DNA of 64,000 bases from Sphingobacteriaceae bacterium (lineage in GTDB: Bacteria > Bacteroidota > Bacteroidia > Sphingobacteriales > Sphingobacteriaceae), in NCBI GenBank assembly GCA_903642215.1, contig CAHJWG010000001.1, positions 186,001 to 250,000 of the forward strand, written 5' to 3'. The notes below the pieces were generated by a model. That model made no database searches, was not told where the DNA came from, and was given only the letters and a program-made list of their open reading frames with translations. Every line of letters starts with the position of its first letter. The first letter of the stretch is position 1. The translations under genes and the position numbers were made by a program. Positions 1 to 63,607 of this stretch are shown one piece after another.

Positions 1-1069
1 GATCGTTTAACGCTAATGATTTCCGGTAAACCGGGATAGCCTGCTGGTAAGAAGCATTTTGCACCAGCATATCGCCGTATAAAGTAAAAGCGCGGGCATC
101 ATCAGGATGCGTAACAGAAACAATTCTGCTCAGTTCTAACGCGCTTGATTTTGCTTCCGGATCCGGGAATTTAGGGAAATAGCCGGCAATAATCGGCAGC
201 TTCTCTTCTACTTTTAAAGACGGAATGGCAAACGCTATTTTTAGCTGGTTAAAACAAGCGGCGTAATCTTTTTTATCGCGGTAAACATCCGCCAAAGCCA
301 GATGCACCAAAGGATCGTCCGAATTAACTTTGCCGGCAGTTTCTAAAACTTTTAAAGCTTTATCATTTTGATTATTAGAATTGTATAATTCGCTTAATTG
401 CAGGTATGGACGGATGTCCTGCGGATTTTCCCGGATCATCTGCTCCATATCTTTCGTTGCCAGATCCAGTTTCCCCTGTTTCAGATAAATTTTTTGTTTG
501 CCGGCAATTGTTTCCGCACTTTTTCCAACTAAACTTTCCAGCTGATCATAACTTGCCAAAGCTTCGTCATACTTTTTTTCGAGCGTTAAAGCCCTGGCCT
601 GATCTGTATAATAATCCGGCTTTTCCGGGTTGATACGGATCAGTTCTTTAAAAACATTTTCCAGCTTTGTTATATCGTTAATTTTCTCATAATTTCCGGC
701 TAAAGCAAGCCAATACCACTCGTTATCCGGGTTTACGGTTACTGCTTTTTCTAACAAAGTACGCGCATCGCTGTCTTTATTTTGATTAGTCCGAATACGG
801 GCCAGTTCATACATTCCGGCATCATTTGCAGGGTCGATTTCTAAAACCTGCGAAAAAAGTGTTGCTGCAGCCGGCGCATTTTCCATCGTTTTTTCGCGCA
901 GTGCCTGGTAAAAAAGCTGTGTTACCATTACGCTGTCGCTGCGGGTTAGCGGTTTGCCAACAACCATTACGATACTGTTTTTATCGGTACTTTTTTTATG
1001 CTGCGCGATAACTATCGCCGGAAAAAAAATCCAACAAAAAACAATGATGATACATTTTGATTTCTCCAT
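1..1069 (-). CDS. TPR-repeat protein, secreted (3' end outside window)
   Basis: The reading frame starts at the ATG at 1069 and runs off the left edge, giving about 356 residues without a stop. The N-terminus (MEKSKCIIIVFCWIFF then PAIVIAQ) is a signal peptide, so the protein is exported. The rest consists of repeated helix pairs with TPR features such as A-x-x-x-F-x-x-x-L-E-I-D-P and A-x-x-x-L-E-K-A-V-x-x-N-P-D. TPR proteins act as scaffolds, and no specific partner can be named. Its start lies one base after the dut stop, so it is probably translationally coupled as the last visible gene of the flippase-dut-TPR operon. An exact copy of the dispersed 14-mer lies inside the gene near its 5' end and is read as D-K-N-S-I. 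Confidence 0.8.
   Translation of the reverse strand, partial: MEKSKCIIIVFCWIFFPAIVIAQHKKSTDKNSIVMVVGKPLTRSDSVMVTQLFYQALREKTMENAPAAATLFSQVLEIDPANDAGMYELARIRTNQNKDSDARTLLEKAVTVNPDNEWYWLALAGNYEKINDITKLENVFKELIRINPEKPDYYTDQARALTLEKKYDEALASYDQLESLVGKSAETIAGKQKIYLKQGKLDLATKDMEQMIRENPQDIRPYLQLSELYNSNNQNDKALKVLETAGKVNSDDPLVHLALADVYRDKKDYAACFNQLKIAFAIPSLKVEEKLPIIAGYFPKFPDPEAKSSALELSRIVSVTHPDDARAFTLYGDMLVQNASYQQAIPVYRKSLALND
972..985 (-). repeat. dispersed 14-mer, exact copy (AC/T form), inside TPR gene
   Basis: The minus strand reads GATAAAAACAGTAT. It lies in the coding region just after the signal peptide of the TPR gene. Confidence 0.85.
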
Positions 1070-1070
1070 T

Positions 1071-1505
1071 TTACTGTACACCCGTGTGGCCGTAACCACC
1101 TGTTCCCCTTAACGTTTCAGTTAAAATTTCTACTTCTTCCCAATTAATTTTTTCGTGCCTGGCAATAATCATTTGCGCAATCCGGTCGCCGTTATTAATC
1201 TCAAAATCCGAATCCGAAAAATTAATCAGCAGCACTTTTATTTCGCCGCGATAATCTGCATCCACCGTTCCCGGAGAATTAACAATACTGATGCCGTGTT
1301 TAAATGCCAGCCCGCTTCTCGGCCTGATCTGCGCCTCAAAGCCAACCGGCAATTCGATAAAAATCCCTGTCGGAATTAAAGCCCGCTGCATCGGCTTTAA
1401 AACAACCGTTTCCGGCAGGTTCGCCTTTAAATCCATACCGGCTGCATGTGCCGTTTCGTAAGCCGGAAGATTATTGCCGGATTGATTGATGATCTGGATA
1501 GTCAT
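1071..1505 (-). CDS. dut: dUTP diphosphatase
   Basis: Trimeric dUTPase that hydrolyses dUTP to dUMP and pyrophosphate, keeping uracil out of DNA and supplying dTMP synthesis in the cytoplasm. All five family motifs are present in order in 144 residues, the usual length: AGMDLKA (motif 1), RPRSGLA (motif 2), GTVDADYRGEIKV (motif 3), GDRIAQMI (motif 4) and the C-terminal P-loop-like RGTGGYGHTG (motif 5). The ATG overlaps the TAA of the upstream flippase by one base (TAATG), so the two are translationally coupled. The TPR gene follows one base after the stop. Pairing of dut with a polysaccharide flippase is common in Bacteroidota and probably reflects a shared transcript rather than shared chemistry. 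Confidence 0.97.
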   Translation of the reverse strand: MTIQIINQSGNNLPAYETAHAAGMDLKANLPETVVLKPMQRALIPTGIFIELPVGFEAQIRPRSGLAFKHGISIVNSPGTVDADYRGEIKVLLINFSDSDFEINNGDRIAQMIIARHEKINWEEVEILTETLRGTGGYGHTGVQ

Positions 1506-62142: not shown

Positions 62143-62146
62143 TTGA

Positions 62147-63607
62147 TTATTTAGCTGAAATTAATTTTTGATTTACCTGCTCAATTAGGTTGGTTACACT
62201 GGCTTCGGACAGATGCTGCAAAGGTTGCGGATAAACGCCAATCATAATAACCAAAGCACAAATGGTGATTAAAAATAGTTTTTCTGAACCGGAAACATCC
62301 ACAAATGAAGATGTCAATGAATTGGCTTCTCCCTGCATCACTTGTTTATACATCCGCAGCATATAAACTGCTCCGAAAATGATGGTTAAACCGGCAATGG
62401 CAACCAGCCAGATGTTATATTGAAAAATCCCGTTCATCAGCAAAAACTCACCGATAAAACCGTTTGTTAATGGTAGCGCAACCGTTCCCATAATTATAAT
62501 GATAAAAGAAGCAGCCAGAAAAGGTGCGCTTTTGGCAATACCGCCCATCAGGCTAATATCTCGTGTATTAATTCTCCTGCTGATGATATCGATCACAAAA
62601 AACAAACCGATTACGTTGATACCATGACTTAGCATTTGGATTATTGCACCTTGCATTCCCTGTATATTCCAAGCAAAAATTCCGGCAGAGATTAAACCAA
62701 CGTGTGCGATGGATGAATATGCAATCAGGCGTTTTCCGTCTTTCTGATTAAAAGCAATTAGCGAAGCATATACAATACCGATAATTGAAAGTATAATCGC
62801 GGTACTTTGCCAGTGTACAAAACCCAATGGTGCAACCGGAATCAACCACCTGATAACTCCGTAAATTCCCATTTTCAGCATAATTCCTGATAACATCATG
62901 GTACCTCCTGTTGGTGCAGTTGTGTAAGTATCCGGTTGCCAAGTATGAAAAGGGAAAATTGGCATTTTGATTGCGAAAGCGATAAAAAAAGCCCAAAATA
63001 TCCAACCCTGATGATAACTATCGAGGCTTAAATTATAAATAGATTGAATATCAAACGATTTATCCGGAGTTTGCAGATGCAGATAGATAATACCTAATAG
63101 CATGAAAAGTGAACCGGCAAATGTATAAATGAAAAATTTGATGGTTACTTTAACGCGATTTTCTCCTCCCCATAAAGCACAAATAAAATAGATTGGTATC
63201 AGTGCAACTTCCCATCCTACATAAAAAAGGAATGCGTCCATTGCTGTAAAAACCAGCAACAAGCCGGTTTGCATGAATAATATCAGCGCGTAAAAAGCTG
63301 CTGGATTGCTATATTTATGTTTGAAGGTTGAAAGAATAATCAGCGGAACTAAAATCGTGGTCAGGATAACCGTAATCAAACTAATTCCATCAATGCCTGC
63401 TTTAAAATGAATGCCAAAATCTGCAATCCAGGGATAATCAACCACATATTGATAAGTAGCATCAGCATGAAAACCGGAAATTATAATTGCTGCGACAACC
63501 AATTCGGCCAAAGCAAAAAATAAAGCGAGATTTTTTACCGAATTGCCTTTAAAAAACAGCAGAACCAGCGCAGCAAATAGTGGTAAAAAGAGTAGAATAA
63601 CCGTCAT
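62147..63607 (-). CDS. nuoM: NADH-quinone oxidoreductase subunit M
   Basis: Complex I antiporter-like subunit of 486 residues. FYVGWEVALIPIYFICALWG has the essential Glu, KMPIFPFHTWQPDTYTTAPT is the broken-helix Lys region, and GKRLIAYSSIAHVGLISAG is the C-terminal half motif. Proton translocation in the membrane arm, between NuoN and NuoL. It carries a one-mismatch 14-mer at 62501-62514 read as A-A-S-F-I. The genes nuoM and nuoN are separated by four bases, so they are co-translated. Confidence 0.97.
   Translation of the reverse strand: MTVILLFLPLFAALVLLFFKGNSVKNLALFFALAELVVAAIIISGFHADATYQYVVDYPWIADFGIHFKAGIDGISLITVILTTILVPLIILSTFKHKYSNPAAFYALILFMQTGLLLVFTAMDAFLFYVGWEVALIPIYFICALWGGENRVKVTIKFFIYTFAGSLFMLLGIIYLHLQTPDKSFDIQSIYNLSLDSYHQGWIFWAFFIAFAIKMPIFPFHTWQPDTYTTAPTGGTMMLSGIMLKMGIYGVIRWLIPVAPLGFVHWQSTAIILSIIGIVYASLIAFNQKDGKRLIAYSSIAHVGLISAGIFAWNIQGMQGAIIQMLSHGINVIGLFFVIDIISRRINTRDISLMGGIAKSAPFLAASFIIIIMGTVALPLTNGFIGEFLLMNGIFQYNIWLVAIAGLTIIFGAVYMLRMYKQVMQGEANSLTSSFVDVSGSEKLFLITICALVIMIGVYPQPLQHLSEASVTNLIEQVNQKLISAK

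What the first reader, a model, noticed from the sequence alone, without database searches (positions are those of the whole stretch)
972..62514. A 14-base word recurs about every 1.45 kb: candidate DNA uptake sequence in a Bacteroidota genome
Seen: the word GRTAAAA(GA or AC)AGYAT occurs on both strands. Exact copies (29): 972, 3326, 5736, 6452, 7885, 11069, 14348, 16308, 20641, 21216, 24935, 25486, 28245, 28958, 33279, 34479, 34505, 36932, 36962, 37448, 37851, 41710, 47367, 48578, 49668, 52940, 56726, 57592, 58119. One-mismatch copies (15): 10995, 27141, 27425, 31205, 38195, 39959, 41373, 42754, 44155, 44275, 45401, 47124, 49717, 50855, 62501. Chance expectation for the eight exact forms in 64 kb is of order 0.01. 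Known: Haemophilus USS and Neisseria DUS occur at about one per 1-1.3 kb, lie on both strands, form inverted-pair terminators and also sit within genes. Inferred: the same pattern here suggests an uptake-sequence-like drive. comF is present in the window but is not specific evidence. A recombination, segregation or methylation signal would be alternatives.
Basis: partly seen in the sequence, partly recalled or inferred. Interest (0 to 1): 0.93.

Follow-up and report, generated by a model that had tools for sequence, protein, structure and literature searches.

The report
DNA-uptake-like word in pilus-less Mucilaginibacter
One small group of Mucilaginibacter bacteria carries the same 14-letter DNA word about 1,600 to 2,500 times per genome while its sampled relatives carry almost none, and the word likely marks the bacterium's own DNA for uptake, which would be a new origin of such a tag outside the two bacterial families known to have one.

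Summary
All 29 exact and 15 near copies check out; chance predicts 0.01-0.04 exact copies per 64 kb. The word occurs 1616 times in this genome and 2087 and 2467 times in the two others of its genus, against 0-10 in 38 other relatives. It is a 14-bp core behind an A/T tract that avoids TpA steps. Copies arise and persist by substitution: 64 of 84 alignable words are kept at 80% background identity, and third codon positions are 94% identical inside words, 62% beside them. An 80-kb island with relaxase, integrases and defence genes has none of the GA/AC words and one AA-form copy. These are marks of DUS/USS uptake words. ComEC and DprA are present, but no pilus ATPase passes its cut-off, so a ComP-type pilin receptor is unlikely. 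Uptake is untested. A second Bacteroidota genome, G030, carries a different iterated word of similar layout.

The parts
972..985 (-). exact word (AC form)
3326..3339 (-). exact word (GA form)
5736..5749 (+). exact word (AC form), 4 bp before the start of the comF-family ORF
5754..6452 (+). ComF-family protein gene, bracketed by two words
   Evidence: TIGR00201 E 2.2e-28, 99.5 bits, below the curated cut-off of 233.55 bits
6452..6465 (-). exact word (AC form), overlapping the last base of the comF-family ORF
7885..7898 (-). exact word (GA form)
11069..11082 (+). exact word (GA form)
14348..14361 (-). exact word (GA form)
16308..16321 (+). exact word (AC form)
20641..20654 (+). exact word (GA form)
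21216..21229 (+). exact word (GA form), inside an ORF
24935..24948 (+). exact word (GA form), inside an ORF
25486..25499 (-). exact word (GA form), inside an ORF
28245..28258 (-). exact word (GA form)
28958..28971 (+). exact word (GA form)
33279..33292 (+). exact word (GA form), inside an ORF
34479..34492 (+). exact word (AC form), at the end of an ORF; left arm of an inverted pair
34505..34518 (-). exact word (AC form); right arm of the inverted pair; RNA hairpin -28.1 kcal/mol, z -8.8
36932..36945 (-). exact word (GA form); left arm of an inverted pair
36962..36975 (+). exact word (GA form); right arm of the inverted pair; RNA hairpin -30.1 kcal/mol, z -7.9
37448..37461 (-). exact word (AC form), inside an ORF
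37851..37864 (-). exact word (GA form), inside an ORF
41710..41723 (+). exact word (AC form)
47367..47380 (+). exact word (GA form), inside an ORF
48578..48591 (+). exact word (GA form)
49668..49681 (+). exact word (AC form)
52940..52953 (+). exact word (GA form)
56726..56739 (+). exact word (GA form)
57592..57605 (-). exact word (GA form), inside an ORF
58119..58132 (+). exact word (AC form)
10995..11008 (-). one-mismatch word
27141..27154 (+). one-mismatch word
27425..27438 (+). one-mismatch word
31205..31218 (+). one-mismatch word (AA middle form)
38195..38208 (-). one-mismatch word
39959..39972 (-). one-mismatch word
41373..41386 (-). one-mismatch word
42754..42767 (+). one-mismatch word
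44155..44168 (-). one-mismatch word
44275..44288 (-). one-mismatch word
45401..45414 (-). one-mismatch word
47124..47137 (-). one-mismatch word
49717..49730 (+). one-mismatch word
50855..50868 (+). one-mismatch word
62501..62514 (+). one-mismatch word

Best explanation
GRTAAAA(GA or AC)AGYAT, preceded by a short A/T tract that avoids TpA steps, is a DNA site repeated throughout the three sampled genomes of one Mucilaginibacter group, and it likely works as a DNA-uptake word by which competent cells would prefer DNA of their own kind. Shown: copy number, restriction to the genus among the genomes sampled, placement on both strands, in-place origin by substitution, maintenance at orthologous sites including silent codon positions, and near-absence from an island that looks acquired. 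Inferred: a surface receptor would read the TAAAA..AGYA inner core directly and the A/T tract by its narrow, stiff shape; DNA carrying the word would enter the periplasm, pass ComEC as a single strand and be recombined by DprA and RecA; each recombination would copy words into cells that had lost them, so that words accumulate as a drive. The receptor is unlikely to be a type IV pilin of the ComP kind, because no pilus ATPase was found in the genus; it is predicted to be an outer-membrane or surface protein of the poorly known Bacteroidota uptake machine.
For: Copy number and genus restriction. Core plus TpA-poor tract: of 560 words in three genomes 484 are all A/T at -10..-6, and 43 of these 484 hold a TpA step against a column-shuffle mean of 247 and 70.5% of genomic A/T pentamers. 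AT-tracts predicted to be narrow-grooved, rigid and slightly bent are part of the Haemophilus USS, and their shape goes with high uptake (PMC7811141, passages seen). Little or no orientation preference: inside ORFs 43 same / 30 opposite in G000 and 42 / 35 in M. arboris; between co-directional genes 32 / 34 and 21 / 33. In-place evolution: of 176 words in 450 kb of G000, 84 align to the 380 kb fetched of M. arboris; 64 of 84 are words there and 36 are identical, where 7% of neighbouring 14-mers are identical; third codon positions are identical in 213 of 227 cases inside words and 1404 of 2269 beside them; 10 sites swapped AC and GA forms. All 11 intragenic words that had an outgroup homologue in the loci at hand (7 distinct loci; 201 of 212 words had none) align ungapped to at least one outgroup. 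80-kb island: no GA/AC word, one AA-form copy, 7 matrix sites where 87 are expected; 20 ORFs scanned of 39 of at least 200 aa listed gave a TrwC relaxase, two integrases, ArdC, HsdM, Piwi and Pycsar effector domains among others. Islands with atypical DUS distributions mark conjugative elements in Neisseria (PMC7371117, abstract seen). Inverted pairs: 20 within 60 bp in two stretches, 16 intergenic; the two in the window fold as strong hairpins. ComEC and DprA in 3 of 3 genomes, a ComF-family gene in the window. Riemerella columbina, also Bacteroidota, prefers its own DNA (PMC7965970, section 16 read).
Against: Uptake and competence of this genus were not tested here; three literature searches gave no report of them (no paper; three papers that mention M. 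arboris, not read; 8 of 69 listed). No receptor was found: no T4P ATPase over the cut-off and no DUF5689 protein like the one essential in R. anatipestifer. ComEC and DprA are present in nearly all searched relatives without the word, so they are not specific evidence. Spacing is only slightly more even than random (CV 0.82; random mean 0.91, lowest of 500 0.78). Outside the island, segments not aligned to M. arboris carry as many sites as aligned ones (1.13 versus 1.05 per kb). Not every word is kept: with G002 30 of 46; a stricter pass gave 55 of 78 kept in M. arboris, 9 with one mismatch, 1 with five and 13 gapped. In G002 strand counts are 123:89. Conservation alone would also fit another DNA-level function.
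Confidence: 0.68

Rival explanations
1. The word is a self-mark read by another system than natural transformation: for example a packaging signal for a gene transfer agent or for DNA-bearing vesicles, or a mark that spares a genome from a genus-specific nuclease.
For: Any such system would also give genus-wide words on both strands, kept by selection and nearly missing from newly acquired DNA.
Against: No such system with a 14-bp word is known to me (recalled); the core-plus-A/T-tract layout matches an uptake word.
Confidence: 0.14
2. The word is the binding site of an abundant chromosome-organising protein that arose in this genus.
For: Intergenic enrichment, a shape-like tract, wide distribution.
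Against: Going from background to about 2000 near-identical sites in one genus without a copying drive is hard to explain (inference); no polarity or clustering is seen in the 450- and 380-kb stretches, though origin and terminus were not located.
Confidence: 0.1
3. The word is a transcription terminator or 3'-end regulatory element.
For: Density is highest between convergent genes: 27 in 8.2 kb in G000, 25 in 5.5 kb in M. arboris (divergent: 10 in 11.5 kb and 14 in 8.8 kb); inverted pairs fold into hairpins.
Against: 73 of 176 words lie inside ORFs and orientation is close to random; in G000 22 of 176 exact words are in inverted pairs within 60 bp, the rest are not. Terminator use of paired words is also known for USS and DUS (recalled).
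Confidence: 0.06
4. The word is the trace of a REP, MITE or other transposed element.
For: High copy number and restriction to one genus. Of 22 gapped orthologue alignments printed, one (G000 contig 1 near 279,079) has a 15-base gap over most of the word, in a poorly aligned stretch.
Against: No conserved sequence beyond about 28 positions; ungapped against outgroups in 11 of 11 words at 7 loci; silent-site conservation and in-place GA/AC swaps.
Confidence: 0.02

Closest known systems
Uptake signal sequence (USS) of Pasteurellaceae, e.g. Haemophilus influenzae AAGTGCGGT with flanking AT-tracts
   Same: About one to two thousand copies per genome (1,465 in H. influenzae), strict inner core with tolerant ends, flanking A/T tract of narrow-groove type, close pairs of words.
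   Different: Different core with no GCGG; 14 bp instead of 9; the strong tract lies 5' of the core as written here; two interchangeable middle forms (GA, AC); Bacteroidota host without a detected pilus ATPase.
DNA uptake sequence (DUS) of Neisseriaceae, ATGCCGTCTGAA
   Same: Copy number (1,892 in N. meningitidis), near-absence from an island of conjugative type.
   Different: Unrelated core; its receptor ComP is a minor type IV pilin, and the genus here has no pilus ATPase over the cut-off.
Natural transformation machinery of Riemerella (Flavobacteriaceae)
   Same: Bacteroidota; ComEC, DprA, ComF and RecA essential there, with no type IV pilus gene named among the eight essential genes of the abstract; R. 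columbina prefers its own DNA.
   Different: The k-mers counted in Riemerella are A-rich low-complexity strings, not a defined word; the DUF5689 protein essential there (predicted fimbrial in that paper) is not found in this genus.
HIP1 of cyanobacteria (recalled)
   Same: Highly iterated short genomic word.
   Different: HIP1 is a short palindrome; this word is directional and much longer.

Membership tests
Pasteurellaceae USS | inner core GCGG | tested here: not met
   Core is TAAAA(GA/AC)AGYA
Pasteurellaceae USS | flanking AT-tracts | tested here: met
   Tract at -10..-6, 484 of 560 all A/T, TpA avoided; a weak A/T-rich zone at +19..+22
Pasteurellaceae USS | about one copy per 1-2 kb on both strands | tested here: met
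   0.91 matrix sites per kb, 409 against 8 in control; exact words one per 2.4 kb in G000, 747 forward and 869 reverse
Pasteurellaceae USS | word promotes DNA uptake | not testable with these tools
   needs an uptake assay
Neisseriaceae DUS | core with CTG, consensus ATGCCGTCTGAA or dialect | tested here: not met
   The GA form, 413 of 560 words, has no CTG on either strand; the AC form has one on its reverse strand
Neisseriaceae DUS | type IV pilus with minor pilin receptor ComP | tested here: not met
   PF00437 over the cut-off in 0 of 3 genomes of the genus (two weak matches below it); 8 of 41 genomes in the same search pass. Pilins themselves were not searched
Neisseriaceae DUS | atypical, low density in integrative conjugative elements | tested here: met
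   No GA/AC word and one AA-form copy in an 80-kb relaxase/integrase island; 7 matrix sites of 87 expected
DNA uptake words in general (functional class) | words arise and are kept in place by substitution | tested here: met
DNA uptake words in general (functional class) | ComEC/DprA uptake and recombination genes | tested here: met
   3 of 3 genomes, but not specific
KOPS or Chi | strand polarity along the replichore | tested here: not met
   86:90 and 87:85 in contiguous stretches of 450 and 380 kb; 123:89 over pieces of six contigs of G002. That each stretch lies in one replichore was not verified
REP/RAYT or MITE | insertion as a unit | tested here: not met
   11 of 11 words at 7 loci ungapped against outgroups; one possible 15-base exception

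The most novel reading that the evidence does not exclude
DNA-uptake words have evolved at least twice within the Bacteroidota, in lineages without type IV pili, each as a different core beside A/T tracts; a so far unknown outer-membrane DNA receptor and motor reads them. The Mucilaginibacter word is one case, the AAAAATAATTTTT word of genome G030 is the other.
Probability: 0.42. Interest if true: 0.96.

Novelty: new variant of a known kind. Interest (0 to 1): 0.9.

Why it matters
[quoted passage not shown] A third origin in another phylum, in cells without a detected pilus ATPase, would show that sequence-specific uptake does not depend on the pilus. It would also give a direct handle on how Bacteroidota move DNA across the outer membrane: Riemerella columbina was found to prefer its own DNA without a defined word (PMC7965970). 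The word could serve as bait for the receptor and as a map of foreign islands.

Tried and rejected
Local artefact: rejected, the word is genome-wide. Family-wide word: rejected, 396 of 399 family genomes are at background with one mismatch allowed. Mobile element, terminator and polarity signal: see rivals. A comEC-linked receptor: of ten ORFs around comEC in L159 eight have ordinary Pfam domains (comEC itself, priA, aldose epimerase, alaS and others) and two have none; one of these two, of 681 residues beside comEC (682 in M. arboris), has homologues in word-free genera and is no candidate; the other, of 585 residues, was not followed. DUF5689 receptor as in Riemerella: absent from the genus. 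The third fold was aimed at the wrong stretch of L119 and is disregarded. The tract-swap table (16 changed tracts of 60; 7 free of TpA on both sides) is too small to use.
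Full report
What was checked. The window has 18 one-mismatch copies in all; the backward-read window has none of either kind. 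Markov models of order 1 to 3 expect 0.01-0.04 exact copies in 64 kb.

Whole genome and relatives. The exact pattern GRTAAAARMAGYAT occurs there 747 + 869 times; the backward pattern occurs 2 times. The genus has two other held genomes, with 2087 (G001) and 2467 (G002) copies; the 38 other relatives have 0-10. With one mismatch allowed, 399 family genomes show 3247, 3802 and 4259 copies in the three and at most about 270 in any of the other 396, by my reading of the table. In 395 genomes across the phylum, the 12-base inner pattern occurs 2655 times in G000 and at most about 110 times in any other, by my reading; G001 and G002 were not in that sample.

Anatomy. 560 exact GA- or AC-form words from about 1.2 Mb of the three genomes show a core G-R-TAAAA-(GA|AC)-AG-Y-AT, mostly a pyrimidine before it (85%), and an A/T tract at -10 to -6. 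484 of 560 tracts are all A/T; 43 of 484 contain a TpA step, against a column-shuffle mean of 247 (lowest of 300: 228) and 70.5% of genomic A/T pentamers. Tracts without TpA are narrow-grooved and stiff (established knowledge). Where the middle pair was left free, it was GA in 116 and AC in 60 of 194 words, AA in 8, others in 10. A weight matrix trained on G001 and G002 and run on 450 kb of G000 passes 409 sites against 8 in the backward control. In these the inner TAAAA..AGYA is nearly fixed (94-99% at its constant bases), and the outer G and T hold in 80%.

Placement. Simple ORF calling (longest frames, not a gene finder) puts 73 of 176 exact words in ORFs, 90 between them and 13 across an edge in G000, and 77, 83 and 12 of 172 in M. 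arboris, where ORFs cover about 90% of the DNA. Orientation against genes is close to random. Density is highest between convergent genes and lowest between divergent ones. Strand counts are 86:90 in G000, 87:85 in M. arboris and 123:89 over pieces of six contigs of G002. Spacing is only slightly more even than random. Twenty inverted pairs of exact words within 60 bp were found in the two long stretches, 16 of them intergenic. The two in the window fold as RNA hairpins of -28.1 and -30.1 kcal/mol, beyond all 200 shuffles each.

In-place evolution. Of 176 G000 words, 84 align to the part of M. arboris that was fetched; the other 92 were not compared. 64 of the 84 are words there too and 36 are identical, where 7% of neighbouring 14-mers are identical. 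Inside ORFs the third codon positions of words are identical in 213 of 227 cases, beside them in 1404 of 2269. Ten orthologous words have swapped AC and GA forms. With G002 the figures are 30 of 46 kept and 97 of 108 third positions. A stricter pass gave 55 of 78 kept, 9 with one mismatch, 1 with five and 13 gapped in M. arboris. Of the 22 gapped alignments printed, one, near 279,079, has a 15-base gap over most of the word; the rest show no word-sized insertion that I can read. Of 212 intragenic words, 11 (at 7 distinct loci) had an outgroup homologue in the loci at hand; each aligns ungapped to at least one outgroup, and the outgroup sequences printed lack the word. So words mostly arise by substitution and are kept as DNA, whatever they encode.

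Island. G000 contig 1 from 42.3 to 122.3 kb has no GA- or AC-form word, one AA-form copy, and 7 matrix sites where about 87 are expected. Of 39 ORFs of at least 200 aa listed in its four 20-kb loci, 20 were scanned: TrwC relaxase, two phage-type integrases, ArdC, HsdM, a Piwi protein, a Pycsar effector, a lantibiotic dehydratase and others; 7 of the 20 had no Pfam match. It is read as acquired DNA. Against a general rule, smaller segments not aligned to M. arboris carry sites at normal density.

Machinery. ComEC is found in 3 of 3 genus genomes and 39 of 41 searched, DprA in 31 of 31, and a ComF-family gene lies in the window between two words, below that model's curated cut-off. PF00437, the ATPase family of type IV pili, type II secretion and Tad pili, passes its cut-off in none of the three (two have weak matches below it) but in 8 of 41 genomes. 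Pilins and secretins were not searched. DUF5689, present in a protein essential for transformation in Riemerella anatipestifer (PMC8459023; abstract, sections 19 and 20 and passages seen), is absent from the three and present in 22 of 60 genomes searched.

Second case. A screen for iterated 9-mers in short loci (25, 20, 20; five of the 65 from this genus) gave the Mucilaginibacter word in all five loci of its own genus. Among the other 60 were a 7-copy cluster in L172, a repeat in the GC-rich L084, weaker signals in several, and one striking case. That is genome G030, another family of the same class, with AAAAATAATTTTT 631 + 629 times in 2.7 Mb against 7 backward; 24 other genomes have 0-38. 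In 397 kb, 189 sites show roughly symmetric flanks and A/T-rich zones about one helical turn out on both sides, with 73 in ORFs, 90 intergenic and 26 across an edge. G030 has ComEC and DprA and no PF00437 or DUF5689 match. Its function is equally untested, TpA avoidance in its tracts was not measured, and the search held no relative close enough for an in-place test.

Literature. Passages of PMC7811141, PMC12616744 and PMC5031613 place uptake words in Pasteurellaceae and Neisseriaceae. PMC7965970 (section 16 read; passages) shows that Riemerella columbina prefers its own DNA but lists only A-rich k-mers. Searches for uptake words with Bacteroidetes, Bacteroidota, Flavobacteriia or Mucilaginibacter listed no other report of such a word in the phylum; two searches listed only 15 of 450 and 8 of 69 papers, only titles and abstract beginnings were seen in the listings, and the library holds open-licence PMC papers only.

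Judgement. The genomic evidence fits an uptake word better than any rival, but uptake was not observed. It is filed as working like DUS/USS, not as a member of either: core and receptor criteria were tested and not met.

Noticed in passing
L193 and L322-L341 (genome G030): A second, unrelated iterated word AAAAATAATTTTT, 1260 copies in 2.7 Mb, with roughly symmetric flanks and A/T zones about one turn out.
   Followed up: partly
L043-L046 (G000 contig 1, 42-122 kb): 80-kb island with relaxase, integrases, ArdC, Hsd methylase, Piwi protein, Pycsar effector, NB-ARC/TPR protein and lantibiotic genes, nearly free of the word.
   Followed up: partly
L172 (genome G017): Seven copies of a CGTCATTGCGAG-like repeat in 20 kb, resembling a REP-type sequence (recalled).
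   Followed up: no
L198 (genome G028): Six copies of CGGTCAGAG in 20 kb against 0.08 expected.
   Followed up: no
window 5736-6465: The comF-family gene is bracketed by two AC-form words, one 4 bp before its start and one at its stop.
   Followed up: no
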